Source of the DNA: a virus
IMG/VR virus record: IMGVR_UViG_3300046366_000135
Location: 1-63,860 of that record
DNA length: 63,860 nucleotides
Direction: 5' to 3' (one strand)
Positions 7,272 through 60,108 of the stretch are shown here, in pieces (position 1 is the first letter of the stretch; each line of letters begins with the position of its first letter). The notes beneath the pieces were generated by a model, which searched no databases, was not told the origin of the DNA, and worked only from the letters and a program-made list of their open reading frames with translations. A program made the translations under genes and the position numbers.

Positions 7272-9046
7272 CGAATTATTTTTGATCCGTCCTCAGTCTT
7301 TACGACCTCAATTGTGTTTGTGTATAAGTGACTTTCGTTCAAATGACTGATAAAGTAAACTGCTTTATCCTTGGAAATCTGTGTGAAGATTTCCCGGATA
7401 GAATCAAGACCATCTTGGTCTAGTCCTATCATGGATTCATCAAAGATTATCAAAGAAGCTTTTGGAGCAATCAATTTAGCTAAGGCAAGTTGGAGGGCAA
7501 GTTCAACCCTAGCTTTTTCTCCCCCTGAAAGATTGCCATAAGGTACACTATCTCCGGTTAATCGCCAAATTTCCAGCTCACTTTTTGTCAACTTTTTCGA
7601 CAAATCCATCGAAAATCTCAAACCAAAGCCAAAAAGTTGACCATAATAACTGATGTATTGATTGAGTTTTTGGAAATAAGACTGAGTAATGTGGGATTTA
7701 AGAGCATTCACCCCTAAAGACTTTACCCAATAATCAGCTTTTACTTTTTCAGTTTCGATTTCCAAAATATCATTTTGGCATTCTTCAATAGCAACCTGAG
7801 CAGAGTATAATTTTTCAGCTAGGTCTGCAAGCCATTGTACAAAATTAGGTTTTGGGGCGTTTTTATGTCTATCTACAGCTTGTTCAGCAGCTACGGTTTT
7901 TGCTTCTAACTTAGCAGTTTCTAAAGCCCAGCGATTATGTTTCTGATCAAACTCTTGTCTAAGCCTGTCAACATTAATAATGTAGCCTTGATACTCATTA
8001 ATCAAATACTCAAGCTTACTTCTTTTCTCAGAGAATTGATTGATTATATCTCCACTAGGCCAATCAGACATAATAGATTCCCCTACTAGTCTCCAAGTGG
8101 CGTATTCGCGTAAGTATTTTTCGTTCAAATCAGCCCAAACCTGCTCATCAACTGTACTTTGCCCACACTTAGGACAAGTAGTTTCAGGTTCTTTCGGCAC
8201 ATTCCTATGATGATTAGCTAATTCCTGCTCCTTTAACTTGACTTTAGTGCCTAATTGATTAACTTCAGACTTTACTAGCTCAAGTTCTTTTTTCGCCTGT
8301 TCTAAAGTTTCCTCGTACTCTGAAGTATCAATAGTCTCATGCTGAGGTTCAGAATTTACATGATTCCTCAACTCAGCCAAACAAAGACGATGCTCAGTTT
8401 CCAAACGCACCAAGATGTCAGCTTGCTCTGCCTCAAAAACTTCTTTGCGTTGCTGGACTGTACCCCCCTCAAGTCTTAAATTCTCTAGTTCCCGATTTAG
8501 GGACTCTAGTTTGGATTTTTGAACTGCTAGAGCCGTATTGAGTTCTTGAGACTTTTGTTTTACTTTTTCACCCAACTGATCAACCCAATCCAACTCAAAC
8601 AAAGTCTCGAAAAATTCACGTCTTTCCTTCTCAGAATAATCAGCTATTCTGACCCCACGTTGAGCCATCAGCACCGAGTTTAGAAACTGCATAGGAGTAA
8701 GTCCCAACACATCAATAATTCGCTGCTGAGTGTCCTTTTTGTACAGCCCTTGGTTTACTCTATTCTCAAGTAAAAGTAACTCTTTTGAATTTCTAGTAAC
8801 TTGGTAGGAGTTATCATTCAATACAAAATGTAAAGAAACTTCAATGGGTTCACCAGATTGACTTTCAACCACTGAACCAGTCTTCAAGGACTCTCCATAA
8901 AGACACCAAAACATTGCTTCAAACAATGAAGTCTTGCCAGCACCATTTTTACCAATAACTTGATGGATACCTGTATCATCCAGATCAAAAACCACTTTGT
9001 TCTTGAATGAACGAAATCCTTTTATTGAAACGTAAGTGAAAATCAT
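7268..9046 (-). CDS. Recombination endonuclease subunit, SbcC/Rad50/T4 gp46-like
   Basis: 592 residues. ABC-type ATPase halves flank a long coiled coil. Walker A is IGKNGAGKTS (32-40); a zinc hook CPKCGQ (C291, C294) lies in the middle of charged heptad-rich helices; the signature LSGGEKARVELALQ begins at 506 and Walker B IIFDESMIGLD at about 533. With the SbcD/gp47 partner immediately upstream (4-base overlap) it forms the Mre11-Rad50-type complex that resects double-strand ends for recombination-dependent replication. Length matches phage gp46 proteins. Confidence 0.93.
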   Translation of the reverse strand: MIFTYVSIKGFRSFKNKVVFDLDDTGIHQVIGKNGAGKTSLFEAMFWCLYGESLKTGSVVESQSGEPIEVSLHFVLNDNSYQVTRNSKELLLLENRVNQGLYKKDTQQRIIDVLGLTPMQFLNSVLMAQRGVRIADYSEKERREFFETLFELDWVDQLGEKVKQKSQELNTALAVQKSKLESLNRELENLRLEGGTVQQRKEVFEAEQADILVRLETEHRLCLAELRNHVNSEPQHETIDTSEYEETLEQAKKELELVKSEVNQLGTKVKLKEQELANHHRNVPKEPETTCPKCGQSTVDEQVWADLNEKYLREYATWRLVGESIMSDWPSGDIINQFSEKRSKLEYLINEYQGYIINVDRLRQEFDQKHNRWALETAKLEAKTVAAEQAVDRHKNAPKPNFVQWLADLAEKLYSAQVAIEECQNDILEIETEKVKADYWVKSLGVNALKSHITQSYFQKLNQYISYYGQLFGFGLRFSMDLSKKLTKSELEIWRLTGDSVPYGNLSGGEKARVELALQLALAKLIAPKASLIIFDESMIGLDQDGLDSIREIFTQISKDKAVYFISHLNESHLYTNTIEVVKTEDGSKIIR

Positions 9047-9951
9047 TGTAGGTATGATTTGATGTATTCAAGAAGAGAGTTATCACCACAGTATTCACCA
9101 AGTATTTGTACCTTATCGTTTGTTTGATAAACTTCAGTCAATTCTTCAGTATTTTCAGTAAGAACTACAACCCCTTGTAAAGAAGCTACAGACTGAGCAA
9201 CTTCTGGATAATTCAACTTAATAGGTTCCCAACTGTCATCTTGAGTATCGTAGAGGTAAATGAACTTATCCTGACCAAAGTCCCCAGCGTCATGTTGATA
9301 AGGATTACCCATTACGATGAGGTTACTGTCTTGACTAGGCTTATGGATATGCCCACACATCACCCAATCAAACTTATACCCATCCAAATCTACATCAGGC
9401 GGGAGGTTAAGGGCATTACCTTGAGGGGTTTGATGCATGACTAAGATATTTCTAGTCATATCACGGCTCTGATACCTATGTAAAATATAATCCAAATAGT
9501 CATTAAAGTCCTGCCCAGAGTTGAAATAAGGCACAAACCACAAAGTAGTACCAAAATTCATGGCAAACTTTTGATTGTCCATTAGATTAAAGTTATGACA
9601 GGCTTGATCAAGACTCCATAAAGAAGTTTTAGGGTAAAGATAATCACCCTCGTCATCAGGATTAAATAGAGCTTTTGTGGCTAAATCATGGTTCCCAGAA
9701 ATCGCAAAAATCTCAACATCTGGAAATTCATTTAAACGCTCAATTGACCAATTCAAAGCATCAATATTCACATTCAAAGGTTGATCAAACCAATCACCGC
9801 CAAAAATGACTTTAGCCCTATGTGTTCTTGCTGTCTCTAGGACTTGGTAAAGTATAGCCAAACCTAAATACAGCATATCTTTACGAGTACCATCTTGAGC
9901 TTTGAGTACGCCAGTTCCTAAATGAAGATCAGAGAAAAATATTAGTTTCAT
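9043..9951 (-). CDS. Recombination endonuclease subunit, SbcD/Mre11/T4 gp47-like
   Basis: 302 residues. All calcineurin-like nuclease motifs are present: FFSDLHLG (D8, H10), FGGDWFDQP (51-59), ISGNHD (85-89), an HQTPQG motif, and MCGHIHKP followed by GNPYQH. These bind two Mn ions. Its stop overlaps the start of the gp46-like gene, and the two products should act as one complex. Assignment is secure at family level. Confidence 0.93.
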   Translation of the reverse strand: MKLIFFSDLHLGTGVLKAQDGTRKDMLYLGLAILYQVLETARTHRAKVIFGGDWFDQPLNVNIDALNWSIERLNEFPDVEIFAISGNHDLATKALFNPDDEGDYLYPKTSLWSLDQACHNFNLMDNQKFAMNFGTTLWFVPYFNSGQDFNDYLDYILHRYQSRDMTRNILVMHQTPQGNALNLPPDVDLDGYKFDWVMCGHIHKPSQDSNLIVMGNPYQHDAGDFGQDKFIYLYDTQDDSWEPIKLNYPEVAQSVASLQGVVVLTENTEELTEVYQTNDKVQILGEYCGDNSLLEYIKSYLQ

Positions 9952-49456: not shown

Positions 49457-52203
49457 CACACAAATTTTGATTTAATTACTGCTGGACAGCCGTCACTGAA
49501 TGTTACTTCTCTCCTCACTTCAAGTGGATAGTAGATAAGTTGATTTGTACGGTCAGAATCAATAAATACCAAAATACTTGAGCAAGAACTTCCAAAAGCA
49601 ATAACTTTTATGGCTTTGCTCAGAGTTCCTATAGGCGTAGCCCGTGTAGCTACGATGTAGCTGGTTCCCAAAGAAACTAGAGTACTTACTGGGATTACAA
49701 GAGAACTAGTCACAACCCCCCAAAAATCTACTGCTTGATTCAGTGAATTATAGAGAGTTACTGATCCAAGGTAATCTGTACAATCACTATTGTCAGTAAT
49801 TGTAAAATCAGAGCCAGAACATAAATAAGTAAAGTCTAAATACTCTCGTACATCACACCCACAAACCGGAGCTGAGTAAACAGTCCAAGAACCTCCAACA
49901 CGTCTCCAAGATACTACATCAGTGCTGATTTGAGAAGTAATTCCAGCTAATCTTTCTACAATAAGACAACTATCATTTAATGTAGCTTCAAAGTTAGGGT
50001 CATTGTTGCAATTATATACAACATCACAGGCATCTGTATTTAAAGGAACAGGCCGGAAAGTGACATCAGCTTTTGTGCCAGTGTAATCAGTAATCTCAGT
50101 TAACCTACCTACGTAATGTTTGTTACCAATTAATACATTCAACCAGCGACGAAAATTCAACTGATCAAATTCAATAGGATTGATAATCAATTGGAAATCA
50201 ATTTCTAAGTTGGCTATAAGCTCTAGTATGAATAATTCCCAGAATTGAGAAGTAACATCATTAGTTCGATCCCCATAAATTAAATGGATTTCTGGGACTT
50301 CAGCAGTCTCATCAGTTCCTATACTTTCATTACTTACTTGATAAGCATAAGGTATAAGAGTCTCAGTGATACCTTTAAATTTCCAGTTAGCTACTACATC
50401 AACCCCACCACTAGTTTTTCCCCTGTATTGAGAAACATACCCTAAAGCATACAAAATTCTAGGAGTGAGTTTAGTGCTTTCTTTGTGATCAGAATTATCC
50501 CAACAAGCCGGGATATTTACAGCACATTCAATGTTTGGTGTGTATACTGCCTGAAGGTCTTTTGACAAATAATTGTCAGACGCTTCAAAGAAAGGATTGT
50601 AATTGTTACTTGTGGCCTCTTCGTACTTATCCCCAAAGTCCAGCTTTTTAGCAAAGATTGGATTATCTCCATCGTAATTTTGACTTTTAACCCAGTCATC
50701 GTCAGGAGCTTTAAACCCGATTTGTAGATAGCGGTTCTCAACAAGTCTACGATAAGTTTCTTTTGTTGAGGTACAATCATACTCAGCGTTAGCTGTCTGC
50801 CCATTAAAAAATGGTTCAGGCTGTTCCCCTGATTGTAATGTAAGCTTATCTGGGTGCAATAACCATACAGTTCTAGTAGATTCATCAGAAATCAACCTAC
50901 CTTGAATAAGATGTATAACCCCAGATAGTAATTTATCAAATTGATATTCACAATTAACCCAGGCTTTTAGGATTAATTGCATATCTGGTTGAAATTTTAC
51001 AGTTTTAGGCTTCACTTTAATACCCCCATTACTAATGGTGTGTTCTCCATCACCCGTATAGTTATCAAAGAATAGATTAAAACTAATTGCGTAGTTAGGC
51101 TGAGTTATGTTTAATACCCTAGTTTTCCATCTTATAGTTTTCTTTTCACCGACTGCTATAAAATTGGGGGAAATATCGACAACCCCTCCCGGCAGAAATC
51201 CAGTAGAGTCTGTGGCAGAACAGAATATCCTGAATAATACAGTATCTCCACTACCTGAAGTGTCTATGTCAAACTCAACCTCAAACTCATATTCCCCGGA
51301 CATTCCTTTAAAATAATAAAATACATAGGAACCATTGGGAAAGGGAACTCCTAATGTGTTTATGTAATAAAATCCATTGTCAAAGCCTCTAAATGAATTG
51401 TCAATGAATTGCAACTCATGTTTGAATGTATCTACAACCCAAGGGGGGTTAGGGTAAGCAGTAGGGTCAGCGAATGCGCTATCTCTATAAGTTTCAGTTT
51501 GATAAACATTTACTTTAAATCCATCAAGGCTATTATCCCCAGCTAAATCTACCAGAATATAGGTGATCAATCTACGTCCCCAATCAGTTTCTAAAATTGG
51601 CGAACGAAATTTATAACCAATAGAGCAAAATCCTTTCTGTAGGATGTAAAGAATATGAAACCAAGGCCGAAAATCGGCTTCATGTGCCCCTCCCGGAGTA
51701 GTTAATACATCCCCGTCCCATACAGCAGAAGTACCAGACCAATTTCCATAGTTTATAAGAGGAAAATAGAGTCCAGAATCTCCATCATTATATTTGGGTT
51801 TAACCCAGTTATTCCTTAAATTTGTCTCAGTGAGGTGGAAATTACCCAAGGCAATTTGACACAACTTGACTTTACGAATTTGGATAGCCCAAAAGCTTGC
51901 ATCCATCACAAGCTCTACTTCCATACCTCTTTTAGTTCTATTGTAAACTCTTAAATAAGTTTGAGGTAAAGGAACTCCATCCTGCCAAGCTTGCACAAAA
52001 GCAAAGTTATCTTTTAATGCCCATTCGTTTTTCTCTGTGTTTATCAAGAAAAATCCCAACACACCTTCAGCAGATACTCGATCTAGCTCAGCCTGATCAG
52101 CTTTCTTGCTCCTTTTGAAATCAGGGCAAAAATCCAGAATTAGCCTACCATCAGTGAGATAGTGATCTGGGGTATTTACCGGAACGTATTGAAGTATAAT
52201 CAT
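49456..52203 (-). CDS. Large tail-tip or baseplate protein
   Basis: 915 residues without signal peptide. Beta-rich; segments such as YLRVYNRTKRGMEVELV, GYKFRSPILETDWGRRL and RRWLNVLIGNKHYVGRLTEI suggest a tail hub or tip that adopts a tail-protein fold, with cysteine-bearing domains at the end (VCGCDVREYLDFTYLC). It overlaps the upstream structural gene by 4 bases, and the tape measure is two genes upstream. Placement after the tape measure is where siphophage tip proteins lie. Confidence 0.6.
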   Translation of the reverse strand: MIILQYVPVNTPDHYLTDGRLILDFCPDFKRSKKADQAELDRVSAEGVLGFFLINTEKNEWALKDNFAFVQAWQDGVPLPQTYLRVYNRTKRGMEVELVMDASFWAIQIRKVKLCQIALGNFHLTETNLRNNWVKPKYNDGDSGLYFPLINYGNWSGTSAVWDGDVLTTPGGAHEADFRPWFHILYILQKGFCSIGYKFRSPILETDWGRRLITYILVDLAGDNSLDGFKVNVYQTETYRDSAFADPTAYPNPPWVVDTFKHELQFIDNSFRGFDNGFYYINTLGVPFPNGSYVFYYFKGMSGEYEFEVEFDIDTSGSGDTVLFRIFCSATDSTGFLPGGVVDISPNFIAVGEKKTIRWKTRVLNITQPNYAISFNLFFDNYTGDGEHTISNGGIKVKPKTVKFQPDMQLILKAWVNCEYQFDKLLSGVIHLIQGRLISDESTRTVWLLHPDKLTLQSGEQPEPFFNGQTANAEYDCTSTKETYRRLVENRYLQIGFKAPDDDWVKSQNYDGDNPIFAKKLDFGDKYEEATSNNYNPFFEASDNYLSKDLQAVYTPNIECAVNIPACWDNSDHKESTKLTPRILYALGYVSQYRGKTSGGVDVVANWKFKGITETLIPYAYQVSNESIGTDETAEVPEIHLIYGDRTNDVTSQFWELFILELIANLEIDFQLIINPIEFDQLNFRRWLNVLIGNKHYVGRLTEITDYTGTKADVTFRPVPLNTDACDVVYNCNNDPNFEATLNDSCLIVERLAGITSQISTDVVSWRRVGGSWTVYSAPVCGCDVREYLDFTYLCSGSDFTITDNSDCTDYLGSVTLYNSLNQAVDFWGVVTSSLVIPVSTLVSLGTSYIVATRATPIGTLSKAIKVIAFGSSCSSILVFIDSDRTNQLIYYPLEVRREVTFSDGCPAVIKSKFV

Positions 52204-53588
52204 TTGTCGAAACGTAGATTAATTCTATAAAGTCTATCTTTTACATAGAAGTTTGTTGAGCCAGGTCGTAGGAATACCTCTTTGAATTGGCCGTACTCAT
52301 AAATATAGTGTTTTGGTGAGTTCAGAAAAACTCCCATACTACGTTTAAATTCTTCTAGGTTATTTCCAGTAGTTGATACAATGAAATTTTCTTTAAGCTC
52401 AAGCCTAGCTTTACGATTTTTACAAGTATCGCATTCAACAGCTACTTCAAGAGTTTCATGTTCATCTACCCACTCAGCCTCATCCAAAGCCTCAAAAATC
52501 ATTTGACTCCATCCACCATCCATGTACCAAATAGGAAAGCATTTACAACCAACACAATTCTTAATAACTGGGAAAGTTTCACTCAATACCTCATCGTTTC
52601 CGTCAATATTTCCAATTACTTGTACTTCCATTCTCACAGCGTCAGATGGCCAGAGTATAGTTTTACCAATAGGTATTTGATAAACACCTGTATTGGATAA
52701 GGTAAAAGGTCTTACTTGTGCTGTAAATCCTCCCCCGGCATCGTAAAAAGTGTATTGAACAAACAAGTCAGTTACTTCAGTAGCCCCAAAATCCAATATG
52801 ATCCATAAAGACTCATAAGTGTCATCACAAATCTTAATAGGTCTTTCCCTTCTAGTTAAAAACTCCACATTCTCAGTCCCCCAATCAACAAAAGAGCCTT
52901 GTACGATACTGAAGATGTCGGTATTTTCAAATCTGTTAAAAGCAGTACCACAAGGAATAGCTTTTTGACTGTCACCATACCGCATAAACGATGGTAGAAA
53001 AGAAGCCTGATCAAACACAGCAGTATTCCCGGTTACTGGGAGCGATGGCACTAGGTCAAGCTTTAGCTCAAAGCATTGATTCTGAGCTATACCCCCATTG
53101 TACAACATTGGAATATTGTACAACGATCCATAAGGGAGGTTGCTCGTAAAAAACTGATAGTGAAATCTATACCCATCAGGAGCATCAGAATCACTACCTG
53201 CATTTGAGCTTACAGTAGGAGGAAATGACAAATCAGATACATCGAATAGCCAATTAGAGTCAAAACCTACATTGTAAGCTTCCAGAAGTACTTGGGTTGT
53301 TGCTATAACTCTAGCATTTGCTCTAGTAAAGAATTCAGGGTTACTATTTAATGCTTCTGCTAAGCTTTGTGCATTAGTAGCTGCTAAATTTGAAGTTAAA
53401 TCACAGTCAGCCCCAACTTCCAGTTTAACACCAGCAATAGTCAACATCTCCCCAAAGACATTAGGCTCTAAGTTCTCGAATATAATTAACGCTGAAGGTC
53501 TTACAGCACTAAAATCATAAGCAAAACAAACTTTAGGGCATGTCTTAGACCCTACATATAGATCAGGTTGGCTGATTAATTCGATCAT
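52200..53588 (-). CDS. Tail protein, probable distal tail or tip component
   Basis: 462 residues. Begins MIELISQPDLYVGSKTCPKVCF; the middle has paired cysteines (CVGCKCFP) and beta repeats; the end VFLRPGSTNFYVKDRLYRINLRF is like a tail-assembly domain. It is the gene right after the tape measure in transcript order, interrupted only by the plus-strand TnpB. Role is by position. Confidence 0.5.
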   Translation of the reverse strand: MIELISQPDLYVGSKTCPKVCFAYDFSAVRPSALIIFENLEPNVFGEMLTIAGVKLEVGADCDLTSNLAATNAQSLAEALNSNPEFFTRANARVIATTQVLLEAYNVGFDSNWLFDVSDLSFPPTVSSNAGSDSDAPDGYRFHYQFFTSNLPYGSLYNIPMLYNGGIAQNQCFELKLDLVPSLPVTGNTAVFDQASFLPSFMRYGDSQKAIPCGTAFNRFENTDIFSIVQGSFVDWGTENVEFLTRRERPIKICDDTYESLWIILDFGATEVTDLFVQYTFYDAGGGFTAQVRPFTLSNTGVYQIPIGKTILWPSDAVRMEVQVIGNIDGNDEVLSETFPVIKNCVGCKCFPIWYMDGGWSQMIFEALDEAEWVDEHETLEVAVECDTCKNRKARLELKENFIVSTTGNNLEEFKRSMGVFLNSPKHYIYEYGQFKEVFLRPGSTNFYVKDRLYRINLRFDK

Positions 53589-53604
53589 ATTAGAGTTACT
53601 TTTG

Positions 53605-53674
53605 GTAAAATTAACAAATTTATTAAAAACGAAACAAAAAGTTTTGCTATTTTAAATTTATTTGTTAATTTTAC
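53605..53674. repeat. 15-bp perfect palindrome next to TnpB
   Basis: GTAAAATTAACAAAT (53605-53619) and ATTTGTTAATTTTAC (53660-53674) form a perfect inverted repeat around 40 bases. It sits between the divergent starts of the tail gene and tnpB. It may be the left-end structure of the TnpB element or an operator for either gene. Confidence 0.55.
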
Positions 53675-53677
53675 AAG

Positions 53678-54763
53678 ATGAAATTGATTTTGAAAATAAA
53701 ACTTAATCCAACCACTGATCAAAGTAAGTTGCTCTATAGCACAATTATAGAGACGAACTTGGCATGCAATGCTATTTCTCAAGACGGATGGGATAATGAA
53801 ATATTCAAACAATTCAAGTTGCATCATCTTTGTTATTATAAGATCAAAAAATCTTTTAATCTCACAAGCCAGATAGTTGTGAGGGCAATTAGTAAAGTTT
53901 CTGACGCTTATAAAGTAAATAAAACTAAACTTGCAAAATTTAAGGAGTTGGGAAGCATTTGCTATGATAGTAGAGTGCTTAAATACAAAAGTGATGCTAT
54001 TGTAGATATTTGGACTGTAGGTGGCAGACAAAAAATAAGGTTTAGTTACCATAATAAAGGGTACTTCCCTTACATAAAGGGGGAGGCTGATTTGGTCTAT
54101 AAAAAAGGAAAGTTTTATCTTTTTCAAACTATTGAGTTTCCCGAACCACCCATTGAATCTGTACAAGAATTTATAGGGGTTGATCTTGGACTTACAGACA
54201 TTGCAGTAACTTCTGATGGAATTAAACATTCCGCAGATCGGATCAACAACTACAGAGAAAAAAGGCAAAATATTCGTAGTTCTATTCAACGCAAAGGCAC
54301 AAAAGGAGCTAAAAAACTCTTGAAACGGCTTTCTGGCAGAGAAAGCACTACTGCAACAATAATTAACCATACTATTTCTAAATCCATTGTGGAATCTGCT
54401 AAAAATCAAAACAAGGGAATCTCTATTGAGGACTTGACCAACATTAGAACTACTTCCAAGCGTAGGAATAGAAAATTTAGAACTAAGCTTGGGCGTTGGT
54501 CTTTCTATCAGTTGCGTTCCTTCTTGGAGTACAAATCCAGACTTAGTGGAGTTAGGTTTGTGGTTGTAAATCCTGCTTATACTTCTCAAACTTGTTCTTC
54601 TTGCTATTATATTGGGACAAGAACTAATAAATCTTTTAAGTGCAAAAATTGTGGAAACAATATGGATGCGGATGCTAACGCATCGCTCAATATTGCTACA
54701 CTTGGGGCTGTTATAAACCAGCCTGAAAAATCGGAAATTTATAGCTGTGCTGTTCATTTCTAG
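53678..54763 (+). CDS. tnpB: TnpB, RNA-guided nuclease of IS200/IS605 type
   Basis: 361 residues, normal TnpB length. RuvC catalytic residues are intact: FIGVDLGLTDIA (D169), ISIEDLTNIR (E251) and MDADANASLNIA (330-341). The zinc finger is TCSSC...CKNC (C306, C309, C322, C325). The N-terminal RNA-binding region is basic. TnpB uses an RNA made from the element's 3' end to cut DNA and maintain the element. No tnpA is nearby. It is on the opposite strand to, and inserted within, the tail gene cluster without breaking a gene. Only 19 bases separate it from the tape measure stop. Confidence 0.92.
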   Translation: MKLILKIKLNPTTDQSKLLYSTIIETNLACNAISQDGWDNEIFKQFKLHHLCYYKIKKSFNLTSQIVVRAISKVSDAYKVNKTKLAKFKELGSICYDSRVLKYKSDAIVDIWTVGGRQKIRFSYHNKGYFPYIKGEADLVYKKGKFYLFQTIEFPEPPIESVQEFIGVDLGLTDIAVTSDGIKHSADRINNYREKRQNIRSSIQRKGTKGAKKLLKRLSGRESTTATIINHTISKSIVESAKNQNKGISIEDLTNIRTTSKRRNRKFRTKLGRWSFYQLRSFLEYKSRLSGVRFVVVNPAYTSQTCSSCYYIGTRTNKSFKCKNCGNNMDADANASLNIATLGAVINQPEKSEIYSCAVHF

Positions 54764-54782
54764 GTTAAAGTCTTTAGACAGT

Positions 54783-57700
54783 TTATCCGGTTATAGTTTG
54801 TAAGTTTTTACGTCTCGCAGCCTCTAAAGCAGCCTCTCTATATCCTTCAACGATGGCATCAGATACAGAAGAACTTACTTCATCAGCTACAATCGTAGCA
54901 AATCTATCAATTTGGCTGTCCTCTAAGGTCAGTTTATATACTGTAGTTCTAGCAGAACCAATACTATCATTCTGAGATGCTGGAAGAACAAAACCTCCTA
55001 CAGCATAGGCAGCGTAATTAGGTGATCCTTTTTTAGTTCTCAAAGACTCTGCCTGAGCAGCCAAAGAAGCCCCAGCAGGAGTATCCAAAACATGTTTAGG
55101 GATTACATACTCATCTTCATGCACAACTCCGGCTACTCTAAAACCAGTATGATCACGTTGACCTGTAGCAGTAGTATAACCACCGACAGCATATGATCTA
55201 GCCCGGATAGCTGAGGTTTGCAAAGCATACTGACCTGTTAAGAAAGCAAGTTGGATGCCTTTGTAGATGGCATCGAATGGTTGCTTAATCACAGAAGCAG
55301 CAGTCAGGATGTTAATGATACCTTGAGCGTAGCTAATGGCAGCCTGGGCTAATTCAATTTTCTTGTTCTTCTCAAATTGCTCTCTTTTCAGAGCATCAAT
55401 CTTACTAGCTTTCTCTTTTTCCAACCGCTCTACAACTTCTTTGTTGCCTCTAGCGGCTTCAATCTCTTTGTCGTAGTATTTCTCAAGGCTCTTAATCCTT
55501 TCATCGAACTGAACGTTGATTAACTCATTGAGAGAATCACCTAGCCCACTAATTTGAGATAGGGTCAGATCGACAAACGTCAGAATATTCTGAGTCTTAG
55601 CATCCAAAGCAAAAACGTCATTATCAGCCTCAAGTTGGCCTAACTGTTGTAGTTTATCATAGTATTGCCTCTGTAAAATTAACCGTTGTTCTAAGGACAG
55701 CTTGGTATTAGATAGTTGAGTTTCAAGGATTTTTATCTCACCCTCAAGCTCTAACCTTTCTACATTTTTTTGATACTCTTCGTAAGATTTACTTTTAGTC
55801 TGAAGTACCTTTCTATCAGTATCAATTTGAATTTTAGCAATTGCCTCAGCTTCGGTAATTGCTGAGCTAATTCCCCCCAACTTAGCCCTTTCTGACTGAA
55901 GTTGTTTGTCAATATCCAAAAACTCCTTACTACCCTCTTTATAGAGTTGCTTTCTAGCTTCAAGGGTTTGGATTTCAGCAGTAATAGCAATAGCTTTCTT
56001 AGTCTCAGCTAAGACGCGCTCATTAGTTATGGTATCCTCAGCATTTTGATCAGCTAAATCTTTAGCAGTTTTGATACTGTCAATCAAAGGCTGTACGTCA
56101 GTTTCTAATAACGCAGTAAACGAACTATTAGAAGCAGCTCTTTGGAGACGCTTGATAGCATCCTCAGCTAACTTCAAATCCTTCTCGGCCTTATCTAAAT
56201 TACCAACAATTTTATTGATTGCTTCAGGCTTCGCTGACTCAAGTTCTTTTTTAAGACTGGATACTTTTTGTTGATAAAACTCAACACTACCAGCAGCCCC
56301 TCGTACAGCCAAGTCCAAAGAATCTAATGTATCTTGCCATTCTTTTTCAGCAGCATTTATTTTGAAAGTAATATCATAGTACTCAGCAAGAAGGTCTGCA
56401 TAAGGTTTACCTTTTACAATTGATTCTTGGATAGCATTTTTTAGTTCAGTCTGTCTTTTAGTTAGTTTCTCTAACTCACTAGCAGCATCCTTATCTCCTT
56501 TAGTTCCATACTGGAACGAAGCTCTCCTACGAAGGTTATCCAAGTCAAATTTGTCAAAAGACAAGACATCTTTGGGAGCTAGTTTTTTCTCCAAAGATTT
56601 TCTAGCCTCTTCAGCAGATTTTTCCAGAGCTTTATTGTCAAGCTTTAGGTTTTTGTTTATAGTTTTACCGACTCCGGCACTAAAAATACCTAGACCATCA
56701 AGCTGTTTTTTGTTTTTTTCAAGATACTGATCATTCTGAATATTACGTTTGGCAATTTCAGTAGCATTATCCTTTGTGATGTTTTGCTGAGTCTTTTTGT
56801 TAAATTGTTCCATTAATTTCTCCCCAAGTACAAAGTTAGCAACATAAGCTACTGGGTTAAATATAGCTAGTAATTTTTTACCTAGATCAGCAGCAAACTC
56901 AAAGACCTTACGAAGTAATTTTGCAAATTCAGAAGTTGAAGTATAGGCATAGTAAATTGCAGATACTAAAGCCCCAACTGCTACAATAGCTATTCCAATA
57001 GGGTTAGCAGTAATGGCTGCATTCCAAGCCCATTGAACAGCAGTTATAAGTCTAGTAATTCCAGTCAATTTAGAAATATTAGCAATCCATTTACCAATAG
57101 CTACACCTGCATTATAAGCGGTTGCTTTAGAATTAAAAACGATAGCCACAGTAAAAGCAGCAATAATCGGGATTAATGCACCCACGATGGCTTTTACTTC
57201 ATTAAACTTAGCAACAGCCTCTTCCTCGCCTTGAACTAAACGAGCAAAAAACTGAACAATGTCAGCTATTCCTTTAACAAAAGCAGCTATTGGCCCGCTC
57301 TGGGTACTAAATATTGCAATTCCCAGAGTTTCAGTAGCCCCCGTCAATTCGTCAAAGGCACCTTTAAGGTCTTTGCGCATTGCTTCAGCAGTAGCTTTGG
57401 AACTGCCCTCAGCATTATCTAACTCAGCGATTAAGTCAACGAGTTTATCTTCTTGTTTAGCCAGAGCGATAGCAACAACAGAAGCATCTTTTCCAAACAA
57501 GGCGTTAGCAACTGCTAGTTTATTCTCAGCATTATTGATAAGATCAAAGGCTTCTTGCAAACTTCTGCCAGAGTTAGCAGTTTCAATAAAGATGTTGCGT
57601 AATGAAGTTCCAGCAGTAGACGCATCAATACTTTCATCTTTAAGAATAGACAACAAACCCGCAGTTGTTTTTAAATCAACACCCACAGCACTGGCTGCTG

Positions 57701-58790
57701 GCCCAACTATACCAATAGCTGTGCCAAAACTTTGTACATCCAGAGCCCCTGAATTAAATGCTTTAGCTAAAATATCTCCGGCTAAAGCAGCATCTTCAGC
57801 TTTCAATTGGAAGATATTCAAAACACCCCCAATAGTTTCTGCTACTTTAGCTAAATCCTCCCCAGAAGTTGTGGCAATATCTGTACTTACGGCTAAAAGA
57901 CTAGTAATCTCTGTTGCAGTTAAGCCTAATTTACCATAAGCAATGGCTAATGCACCAATTTCTTGTGAAGTAAACTCAGAACTAGCCCCAACTTTAAGAA
58001 TTTCATCCTTCAGAATAGTAAATTCCTCTGGGGTAGCTTGAGTGACGGCCCTAATTGTAGACAACTGACGACTAAAATTGATCGTATTATTCAAAGCAGT
58101 CTTGATTGCTGTATCTAGTAGGCCCACAGCAGCGGTAATACCACCAGTGGCAATACCAAAAGTTAGAATATCGGCCACAGAACCAATAGCCGATCTGTAA
58201 TTACCCACATTTCGTTGGTAAAGCCCTAACTTTTTGTCTAAATCTTGTAGTCTTGTAGCTAAAACATTAGCCTGAGAGGCAATTTGAGTACCTACAGGGC
58301 TATTCCTTACATCCTCACTAAGATTTTTGTACTCATTACGTAGTTTGACTAACTCAGCAGACATAGCCCGGTAAGAGCCAATAGGGAATTGTTGTTTTTG
58401 GAGAGTTCCTTTTAATTCCCCATCAATTTTTGTAAGTTCTTGACGAAGTTTTGATATATTTTTGAGTAAATTTGCACCTACATCAGAATCTCGATCTTCT
58501 TTAACTAGTGTTTGGTACTGTTCTATTAGGTTTTTTAATTCTTGTTTTATAGTATTATAACTTTTCTTTATTGTGTCAGTAGCATCAACATTTTCTCTTT
58601 TAAATTGGGAGGTTAGCCCAATAAGAAAATTAAGGGTTTGTTTTAACGGCTCTAGCCCTTCTTTAGAATCACCCAAAGCAGCTATAGCACTACGAGTATC
58701 TATCAGTGCTTCGTTTAAACTTTGAAGGGTATTTAGAACTACTTTACCATTTGGTAAAGTTATCTCTAAACTAATTACTTTTGCGGCCAT
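54783..58790 (-). CDS. Tape measure protein
   Basis: 1335 residues. A central region FSRQLSTIRAVTQATPEEF...LKDEILKVGASSEFTSQEIGALAIAYGKLGL...TSGEDLAKVAETIGGVLNIF is the TP901-type tape-measure core. Long coiled coils lie before and after it, a hydrophobic block around 535-625 is typical of the membrane-passing part, and the C-terminus has SYAVGGYTTATG-like loops. At the usual 0.15 nm per residue the tail would be about 200 nm, a long siphovirus tail. Confidence 0.92.
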   Translation of the reverse strand: MAAKVISLEITLPNGKVVLNTLQSLNEALIDTRSAIAALGDSKEGLEPLKQTLNFLIGLTSQFKRENVDATDTIKKSYNTIKQELKNLIEQYQTLVKEDRDSDVGANLLKNISKLRQELTKIDGELKGTLQKQQFPIGSYRAMSAELVKLRNEYKNLSEDVRNSPVGTQIASQANVLATRLQDLDKKLGLYQRNVGNYRSAIGSVADILTFGIATGGITAAVGLLDTAIKTALNNTINFSRQLSTIRAVTQATPEEFTILKDEILKVGASSEFTSQEIGALAIAYGKLGLTATEITSLLAVSTDIATTSGEDLAKVAETIGGVLNIFQLKAEDAALAGDILAKAFNSGALDVQSFGTAIGIVGPAASAVGVDLKTTAGLLSILKDESIDASTAGTSLRNIFIETANSGRSLQEAFDLINNAENKLAVANALFGKDASVVAIALAKQEDKLVDLIAELDNAEGSSKATAEAMRKDLKGAFDELTGATETLGIAIFSTQSGPIAAFVKGIADIVQFFARLVQGEEEAVAKFNEVKAIVGALIPIIAAFTVAIVFNSKATAYNAGVAIGKWIANISKLTGITRLITAVQWAWNAAITANPIGIAIVAVGALVSAIYYAYTSTSEFAKLLRKVFEFAADLGKKLLAIFNPVAYVANFVLGEKLMEQFNKKTQQNITKDNATEIAKRNIQNDQYLEKNKKQLDGLGIFSAGVGKTINKNLKLDNKALEKSAEEARKSLEKKLAPKDVLSFDKFDLDNLRRRASFQYGTKGDKDAASELEKLTKRQTELKNAIQESIVKGKPYADLLAEYYDITFKINAAEKEWQDTLDSLDLAVRGAAGSVEFYQQKVSSLKKELESAKPEAINKIVGNLDKAEKDLKLAEDAIKRLQRAASNSSFTALLETDVQPLIDSIKTAKDLADQNAEDTITNERVLAETKKAIAITAEIQTLEARKQLYKEGSKEFLDIDKQLQSERAKLGGISSAITEAEAIAKIQIDTDRKVLQTKSKSYEEYQKNVERLELEGEIKILETQLSNTKLSLEQRLILQRQYYDKLQQLGQLEADNDVFALDAKTQNILTFVDLTLSQISGLGDSLNELINVQFDERIKSLEKYYDKEIEAARGNKEVVERLEKEKASKIDALKREQFEKNKKIELAQAAISYAQGIINILTAASVIKQPFDAIYKGIQLAFLTGQYALQTSAIRARSYAVGGYTTATGQRDHTGFRVAGVVHEDEYVIPKHVLDTPAGASLAAQAESLRTKKGSPNYAAYAVGGFVLPASQNDSIGSARTTVYKLTLEDSQIDRFATIVADEVSSSVSDAIVEGYREAALEAARRKNLQTITG

Positions 58791-59523: not shown

Positions 59524-59829
59524 ATGGAATACAATGAAGAAACTGGGGAAGTGGAATCTATGAAAGTTCATTTCTTAGATTTAGACCCAAATTATGAATA
59601 TCATGTGCAATGGTGTGATGTCATGGTGTGGAGATTTAAAAATGCTCCTTATTGGGCAAAATACCTTTCTATTAATGGTGGAGATGAGGATTGGTTAGCT
59701 ATCTGCACAGTTAAATTCTGGAACCAACAAAATCATTACATCCCTTGGATTGACCGTATGGGAGTTTGTGATGTAGATGTGTTTGAAGTTGATGAAAAAT
59801 TCATGGTCTTTATTGGCTCACACGCTTAA
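59524..59829 (+). CDS. Hypothetical protein
   Basis: 101 residues, aromatic-rich (DPNYEYHVQWCDVMVWRFKNAPYWAKYL). No motif recognised. Its stop lies at the start of the first copy of the 18-base repeat shared with the next start. Confidence 0.6.
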   Translation: MEYNEETGEVESMKVHFLDLDPNYEYHVQWCDVMVWRFKNAPYWAKYLSINGGDEDWLAICTVKFWNQQNHYIPWIDRMGVCDVDVFEVDEKFMVFIGSHA

Positions 59830-60001
59830 AACCTTGACAATAATGAGGACTTTATTAATATCTGTAATCTACATTATTCTACTCAACCTATGTTACTACA
59901 TACCTGATGAGTTTTGGTTCCATTTTGCTTTGGCACTAATTACCCTTACCTTTATGTCAATAACTCATAGAAATTTTAAAACCAAACCTTGACAATAATG
60001 A
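59829..60001 (+). repeat. 18-base direct repeat over two start codons
   Basis: AAACCTTGACAATAATGA occurs at 59829-59846 and 59984-60001. Each copy contains the start codon of the following short gene (59843 and 59998). It may reflect duplication of a translation-start region or a shared RNA control element. Confidence 0.75.
59843..59992 (+). CDS. 49-residue membrane protein
   Basis: MRTLLISVIYIILLNLCYYIPDEFWFHFALALITLTFM... has two hydrophobic stretches. A longer frame from 59777 lies inside the previous gene; the ATG at 59843 in the repeated start region is preferred. Unknown role. Confidence 0.55.
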   Translation: MRTLLISVIYIILLNLCYYIPDEFWFHFALALITLTFMSITHRNFKTKP

Positions 60002-60108
60002 AAAAGTTACTTATCTTTGTCTTGATTTTACTTACTTCATGTGGCACTATTCGCAGACCTGATGGCTATCAAGCTAAAGCTCGTTGTGGATACCATAAAC
60101 CTAACTAA
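59998..60108 (+). CDS. 36-residue lipoprotein-like peptide
   Basis: MKKLLIFVLILLTSCG is a complete lipoprotein signal with lipobox LTSC, leaving only about 22 mature residues (TIRRPDGYQAKARCGYHKPN). Such tiny lipoproteins could be superinfection-exclusion or lysis factors. Four bases after the stop the next gene starts. Confidence 0.55.
   Translation: MKKLLIFVLILLTSCGTIRRPDGYQAKARCGYHKPN

What the first reader, a model, noticed from the sequence alone, without database searches (positions are those of the whole stretch)
53605..54782. Intact TnpB lodged antisense in the tail gene cluster
All three RuvC motifs and the zinc finger are present, and the gene sits between two tail genes without disrupting them, on the opposite strand. 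A perfect 15-bp palindrome precedes it, and only 19 bases follow before the next stop, so any guide RNA would overlap the end of tnpB or the tape measure terminus. It may act as a phage-encoded guided nuclease, for example against rival phages lacking the element.
Basis: partly seen in the sequence, partly recalled or inferred. Interest (0 to 1): 0.52.

Follow-up and report, generated by a model that had tools for sequence, protein, structure and literature searches.

The report
Phage TnpB element at silent junction
A small mobile element carrying an RNA-guided DNA-cutting enzyme sits in a phage exactly where one tail gene's stop codon met the next gene's start codon, in such a way that neither protein changes, and relatives in other phages use the same trick.

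Summary
In detail: window 53678-54763 encodes an intact 361-aa TnpB between two antisense tail genes. Comparison with 75 related loci sets the element at 53589-54786 (1198 bp). Its left edge follows NTCAT, the antisense start codon of the 462-aa tail gene; its right edge ends GTTTAT; the guide would start at 54787, in the tape-measure gene. Joining the flanks restores an ATGA stop/start overlap; with the element in place its antisense TAA replaces that stop and both proteins stay unchanged. Exact empty sites exist for a family member (L019: three contigs), not for the window. An omega-RNA hairpin and a pseudoknot between tnpB codons 346-347 and the right end covary across 48 family members; the window keeps both. 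Most likely a TnpA-less IS200/IS605-type element whose RNP cuts unoccupied copies of its own site (retention, homing). A general weapon against rivals is not supported. New at family level: insertions sit at stop/start overlaps, and the right end is element end, pseudoknot strand and replacement stop codon at once. Against: the window lacks the usual left-end hairpin, its right-end hairpin is very short, its TAM is ATCAT, and no activity was measured.

The parts
53589..54786 (+). whole TnpB element (1198 bp)
   Evidence: left edge after NTCAT and right edge after GTTTAY from family comparison; rule verified by empty sites of relative L019; joined flanks restore an ATGA overlap
53584..53588 (+). 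ATCAT at the TAM position (family TTCAT); its CAT is the antisense ATG of the tail gene
53605..53619 (+). left arm of the perfect 15-bp inverted repeat
   Evidence: shuffles
53660..53674 (+). right arm of the inverted repeat; holds TAATTTTA at the position of the family's promoter-like TAnnTTTG
   Evidence: promoter role is inference
53678..54763 (+). tnpB, 361 aa
54706..54723 (+). omega-RNA hairpin inside the tnpB coding sequence: arms GGCTG/CAGCC, loop ATAAAC at 54713-54718
   Evidence: arm and loop covariation
54770..54779 (+). reduced right-end hairpin GTC-TTTA-GAC
   Evidence: position homologous to the longer hairpins of relatives; weakly supported by folding
54781..54786 (+). GTTTAT: 3' strand of the pseudoknot, right end of the element, and antisense stop codon TAA at 54783-54785
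54787..54806 (+). predicted guide region CCGGTTATAGTTTGTAAGTT, antisense to the tape-measure 3' end
   Evidence: position directly after the right end; length is inference
52200..53588 (-). 462-aa tail-cluster gene starting at the left edge of the element
   Evidence: no family match
54783..58790 (-). tape-measure gene, 1335 codons, stop codon supplied by the element

Best explanation
It is a TnpA-less IS200/IS605-type element: tnpB plus an overlapping omega-RNA. Shown or strongly indicated by sequence: exact edges; an intact RuvC triad; omega-RNA hairpin and pseudoknot; insertion at the junction where the tape-measure TGA overlapped the tail-gene ATG, with the element's antisense TAA replacing that stop so that neither protein changes. 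Inferred: TnpB binds an RNA cut from its own mRNA whose last ~16-20 nt copy the tape-measure 3' end, and cleaves phage DNA carrying NTCAT followed by that sequence, i.e. copies of the same phage without the element. Repair from an occupied copy, or loss of the cut genome, keeps and spreads the element during phage replication or co-infection. A Y1 transposase acting in trans in the host would be needed for new insertions. This copy, lacking the family's usual left-end hairpin, may no longer transpose and may persist only by vertical descent and homing.
For: NCBIfam guided_TnpB above cut-off; triad in 51 of 51 distinct proteins; 77 of 80 otherwise invariant columns kept in the window. Pseudoknot loop/right end: all six pairs in 42 of 48 elements (shuffle mean 28.9, max 36 of 20,000), 44 of 48 after shifting L066 and L067 by one base (mean 30.5, max 37); end pair G-C in 34 and A-U in 14 of 48; hairpin arms 5/5 in 42 of 48 (shuffled mean 6.3, max 14). 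Window: six Watson-Crick pairs. TCAT within 26 nt of the left-end motif in 41 of 44 distinct sites (37 TTCAT) against 227 of 1435 control windows. Empty sites of L019 in L114, L115 and L116, gap-free across the junction at 90.9, 87.8 and 98.9% identity (L111-L113 are the occupied copies themselves). Antisense gene open into the right end in the 1-/4-nt-overlap frame at 21 of 27 sites (p 2.9e-6). Window junction: the joined tape-measure ORF keeps 1335 codons and its C-terminus.
Against: No empty site for the window itself. The window lacks the canonical left-end hairpin, its right-end hairpin has 3 bp and the 46-nt end does not fold better than shuffles (z 0.03); TAM position reads ATCAT. No Y1 TnpA in the window record and in only 2 of 47 viral records of relatives, one a contig-edge fragment. 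No transcript or cleavage data. The window branch is long (0.61), compatible with relaxed constraint.
Confidence: 0.72

Rival explanations
1. Stranded remnant: the copy has lost transposon ends and survives because the insertion is silent; nuclease and guide RNA are decaying and have no present function.
For: No canonical left end, shortest right-end hairpin of the set by eye, TAM position mutated, long branch, no TnpA.
Against: Open frame over 361 codons, catalytic triad and Cys kept, 77 of 80 otherwise invariant columns kept, pseudoknot fully Watson-Crick in its own variant ATAAAC/GTTTAT.
Confidence: 0.18
2. Phage-encoded weapon: TnpB-RNA excludes competing phages in general, a superinfection-exclusion nuclease.
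For: Active-site residues intact; the tape-measure terminus as target could be shared by close relatives.
Against: A single guide, fixed by the insertion site; no CRISPR-like array in the window; target string absent from IMG/VR; relatives sit at unrelated sites in unrelated phages, as expected of mobility rather than of a fixed target.
Confidence: 0.06
3. TldR-like RNA-guided repressor of tail genes.
For: Sits at a start codon, where a bound complex could block transcription; this is conjecture.
Against: TldRs are defined by a lost RuvC active site (PMC13418256, passages read); here the triad is intact in 51 of 51, and in the occupied genome TAM and guide match are split by the element.
Confidence: 0.04

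Closest known systems
ISDra2 TnpB / omega-RNA (IS200/IS605)
   Same: TnpB fold family (sequence hit 8h1j; Foldseek hit E 4.8e-13), DED RuvC triad, zinc finger, guide RNA overlapping the tnpB 3' end and right end, pseudoknot, guide starting right after the right end, insertion 3' of a short motif (PMC10097598 passages; PMC10711439 passages)
   Different: TAM TTCAT instead of TTGAT; no tnpA beside it; right end doubles as an antisense stop codon; carried by phages; window copy without canonical left end
[quoted passage not shown]
   Same: proposed cutting of element-free copies of a multicopy replicon
   Different: there shown by experiment in plasmids; here inferred for phages from occupied and empty alleles
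TldR of flagellin-remodelling prophages (PMC13418256, passages read)
   Same: TnpB-derived protein carried by a phage
   Different: TldR has lost the nuclease site; here it is intact
IStrons (PMC4227781, abstract start in the search listing)
   Same: insertion-sequence elements whose insertions are rendered harmless to the host
   Different: IStrons splice out of RNA; here the ends keep both reading frames, without splicing
Phage homing endonuclease genes (PMC10448857, abstract start in the search listing)
   Same: selfish nuclease gene carried between phage genes; empty alleles in relatives (recalled for those; shown here for L019)
   Different: RNA-guided and re-programmed at each new site rather than protein-defined specificity

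Membership tests
TnpB RNA-guided nuclease (OMEGA) | full-length match to curated TnpB model | tested here: met
   NF040570 182.7 bits, cut-off 100
TnpB RNA-guided nuclease (OMEGA) | RuvC D-E-D triad and zinc finger | tested here: met
   D169, E251, D332; C306, C309, C322, C325
TnpB RNA-guided nuclease (OMEGA) | omega-RNA overlapping tnpB 3' end and right end, with pseudoknot next to the guide | tested here: met
   covariation; by computation only, no transcript seen
TnpB RNA-guided nuclease (OMEGA) | TAM beside the left end | tested here: inconclusive
   family TTCAT; window ATCAT. In SisTnpB the -5 base is tolerant (PMC11043419 passage)
TnpB RNA-guided nuclease (OMEGA) | guided DNA cleavage | not testable with these tools
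IS200/IS605 element | precise insertion 3' of a short motif, no target duplication | tested here: met
   shown for relative L019 by three empty sites; inferred for the window from the restored ATGA
IS200/IS605 element | left-end and right-end hairpins | tested here: not met
   window has no canonical left-end hairpin and only a 3-bp right-end hairpin; 44 distinct sites of relatives have the left-end motif. So the window copy is described as IS200/IS605-type or derived, not as a complete member
IS200/IS605 element | Y1 transposase TnpA in cis | tested here: not met
   PF01797: 0 in the window record; 2 of 47 viral records of relatives. tnpB-only members are known (recalled)
IS607 element | serine recombinase TnpA and dinucleotide crossover | not tested
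   no resolvase search of the window; insertion pattern at L019 is of the IS200/IS605 kind
TldR repressor | inactivated RuvC site | tested here: not met
   triad intact
CRISPR-Cas12f | CRISPR array | tested here: not met
   no array-like repeat in the window, although PADLOC Cas12f profiles match

The most novel reading that the evidence does not exclude
This TnpB lineage is adapted to live in the densely packed operons of phages without cost: its TAM is the antisense start codon (TTCAT, also TTCAC), and its right-end hexamer GTTTAY (RTAAAC on the antisense strand) is at once transposon end, omega-RNA pseudoknot strand and replacement stop codon, so insertion into ATGA or TAATG stop/start overlaps leaves both proteins essentially unchanged. 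Copies that lose the left end then persist as homing-only, RNA-guided drives.
Probability: 0.45. Interest if true: 0.66.

Novelty: new variant of a known kind. Interest (0 to 1): 0.5.

Why it matters
How elements persist in phage genomes that have almost no spare DNA is an open question. Here an answer can be read in the sequence: the target motif and the element's own end together rebuild the stop/start junction they break. It gives occupied and empty natural alleles in sister phages, with the predicted guide, so RNA-guided homing in phages can be tested directly. It also gives a compact TnpB family (about 360 aa) with a TTCAT-type TAM and a structure-defined guide RNA.

Tried and rejected
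Search for an empty site of the window: tail-gene and tape-measure relatives in IMG/VR, phage records and the exact junction string gave none; tape-measure hits were remote (28%). Empty site for L041: only its own contig.

A clade of homing-only elements that lost the left end together: rejected. On the tree the 10 'no left end' rows need 9 changes (shuffled mean 9.3), so loss looks scattered. The labels were given by eye.

Boundary after TTTA rather than TTTAY: rejected, because the last base is Y in all right ends counted, pairs with R in the loop (48 of 48), and the empty sites of L019 lack it.

Linking a TnpA gene to the same ends: the Y1 loci L103-L110 scanned by pattern carried no matching pair of ends (two single right-end-like matches, in L106 and L110; the L106 one is the right end of L009's own element). 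CRISPR array near the gene: none. Rfam: no match at gathering threshold. Phage enrichment over bacteria: not claimed; 5 of 395 genomes of the phylum of G001 match at E<=1e-40, and two of these at E<=1e-100, G001 among them, but collections differ in make-up. The codon test at Asn347 (AAC 23, AAT 17, against 333 and 689 elsewhere) is only suggestive.

Rows dropped before counts: L047-L049 and L084-L095 (distant) and L083; 76 loci, the window included, remained. Right ends of L078, L080-L082, L033, L034, L044, L046 and the truncated loci were not counted; L013 was added by hand. 48 of 51 protein clusters had a right end.

Literature searches listed no paper whose title or shown abstract start describes TnpB insertion at stop/start overlaps; this is a statement about those searches only, and most listed papers were seen as listings.

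Full report
Observation. The ORF at 53678-54763 (+) encodes 361 aa. It matches the TNB domain of Pfam, NCBIfam guided_TnpB above its cut-off, solved TnpB and Cas12f structures by sequence, and an AlphaFold2 model (mean pLDDT 85.4) is closest to Cas12f and TnpB structures (TM about 0.5 at best, overall rmsd high).

Relatives. 40 IMG/VR loci, enlarged to 79 with a 30-row alignment, and 8 bacterial or archaeal loci were fetched. Nearest to the window is L006 at 68% identity. Of 64 proteins taken as full-length 51 are distinct at 97%; all 51 keep D, E and D of the RuvC site. The four closest cellular carriers are Bacteroidota (Proteiniphilum, Paludibacter, a Chitinophagaceae and a Bacteroidia genome); 5 of 395 genomes of the phylum of G001 had a match at E<=1e-40.

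Edges. Printing the flanks showed one kind of right end, usually hairpin-GTAGTTTA(C/T), and one left neighbour, TTCAT. Among 44 distinct sites with the recognisable left-end motif, 41 have TCAT within 26 nt before it, 37 of them TTCAT, at a spacing of 11-15 nt in 39; in control windows of equal width TCAT occurs in 227 of 1435. Two of the three exceptions read TTCAC and CTCAC, the antisense of GTG start codons; L023 is unexplained. In 30 of the 41 the CAT begins an antisense ORF of at least 40 codons, against 519 of 1596 other TTCATs in the same loci.

Empty sites. The protein left of the L019 element led to three contigs without the element, L114-L116. The joined flanks of L019 align to them without a gap across the junction, at 90.9, 87.8 and 98.9% identity. 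The excised unit is 1274 bp, starts right after TTCAT and ends with TTTAC; there is no target duplication. In the empty state the upstream gene ends in TGA overlapping the next ATG (ATGA); in the occupied state it ends in the element's TAA, with one Ile-to-Met change. L114 and L115 match the predicted guide over at least its first 20 nt, and L116 differs at guide position 3 (read).

The window's site. The same rule puts the element at 53589-54786. Joining the flanks gives CCGG|ATGATC on the minus strand: the tape-measure TGA overlaps the tail-gene ATG, and the joined tape-measure ORF has the same 1335 codons and C-terminus. So the element's antisense TAA stands in for the lost TGA and nothing changes in either protein. 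A distant phage, Peternella_1, also has a 4-base overlap between its tape measure and the next gene (annotation). No empty site for the window was found.

The stop/start rule. Of 52 distinct right ends, 27 have an antisense frame open for at least 90 codons; 21 of these are in the one frame that fits a 4- or 1-base stop/start overlap, 4 and 2 in the others (p 2.9e-6 against one third). In 17 of the 21 the stop is the element's own TAA; in 4 it is formed at the edge itself. Survivor selection, rather than aimed insertion, may explain the location; it does not by itself explain why the end carries a stop in the needed frame, though that hexamer is also held by the RNA pseudoknot, so the stop could be a by-product of it.

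Guide RNA. Codons 346-347 of tnpB form a loop (window ATAAAC, 54713-54718) complementary to the last six bases of the element (GTTTAT). All six pairs form in 42 of 48 elements; random re-pairing of ends gives 28.9 on average and at most 36 in 20,000 trials. Two further elements, L066 and L067, keep the loop one base out of codon register; counted so, 44 of 48 (mean 30.5, maximum 37). The first loop base and the last end base are G-C in 34 and A-U in 14 of 48. The arms around the loop pair 5 of 5 in 42 of 48 (shuffled mean 6.3, maximum 14). Relatedness inflates such tests, but the compensatory types are several, and more distant relatives such as L085, L087, L088 and L090 show matching loop/end pairs by eye. 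A pseudoknot is reported for the ISDra2 omega-RNA (PMC10097598, passages). The window keeps arms and pseudoknot intact.

What is weak in the window. Its left end lacks the outer-stem/inner-hairpin motif of most relatives; instead it has the 15-bp inverted repeat, whose right arm overlaps the promoter-like position (TAnnTTTG ends 2-9 nt before the start codon in 26 of 51 family members, against 45 of 10,200 random places; the window itself has TAATTTTA). The arm facing outward repeats the same core towards the tail gene, so a two-way promoter that feeds the tail gene is possible; this is conjecture. The right-end hairpin has 3 bp, and folding does not favour it clearly. The TAM position reads ATCAT; in one studied TnpB the first TAM base is tolerant (PMC11043419, passage). 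No Y1 transposase lies in the window.

Verdict. A real, well-preserved TnpB element of the IS200/IS605 type without its own transposase, inserted silently at a stop/start overlap, most likely a selfish RNA-guided element that destroys or converts copies of its phage that lack it. Active nuclease and homing remain inference. The ordinary part is a TnpB in a phage; the unusual part is the junction design shared by its family.

Noticed in passing
L002:8607-11009 (-): An 800-aa terminase-like ORF seems to hold an intein-like insert (block starting near CFLGNTLVATKRG and ending near HHEYYANNILVSNC), with a separate HNH-like 212-aa ORF (8797-9435) nested in another frame (by eye).
   Followed up: no
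25-40 nt upstream of tnpB in most relatives: A conserved dyad (TTTCNNATATNNGAAA or TCAAATATTTGA) near the promoter-like TAnnTTTG; possibly an operator.
   Followed up: no
window 59829-59865 and 59984-60020: Two 37-nt direct repeats (78% alike) among small plus-strand genes; promoter-like (TTGACA).
   Followed up: no
L071:1-375: A copy of the L069/L070 element (at least 97% identical protein) at another site with only the right half of the left end left: left-end loss in progress.
   Followed up: partly
L019 and L039: TnpBs at least 97% identical at different insertion sites, so recent movement.
   Followed up: partly
L066 and L067, 3' end of tnpB: Pseudoknot loop GTAAAC kept one base out of the codon register used by the others: RNA kept while the peptide changed.
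   Followed up: partly
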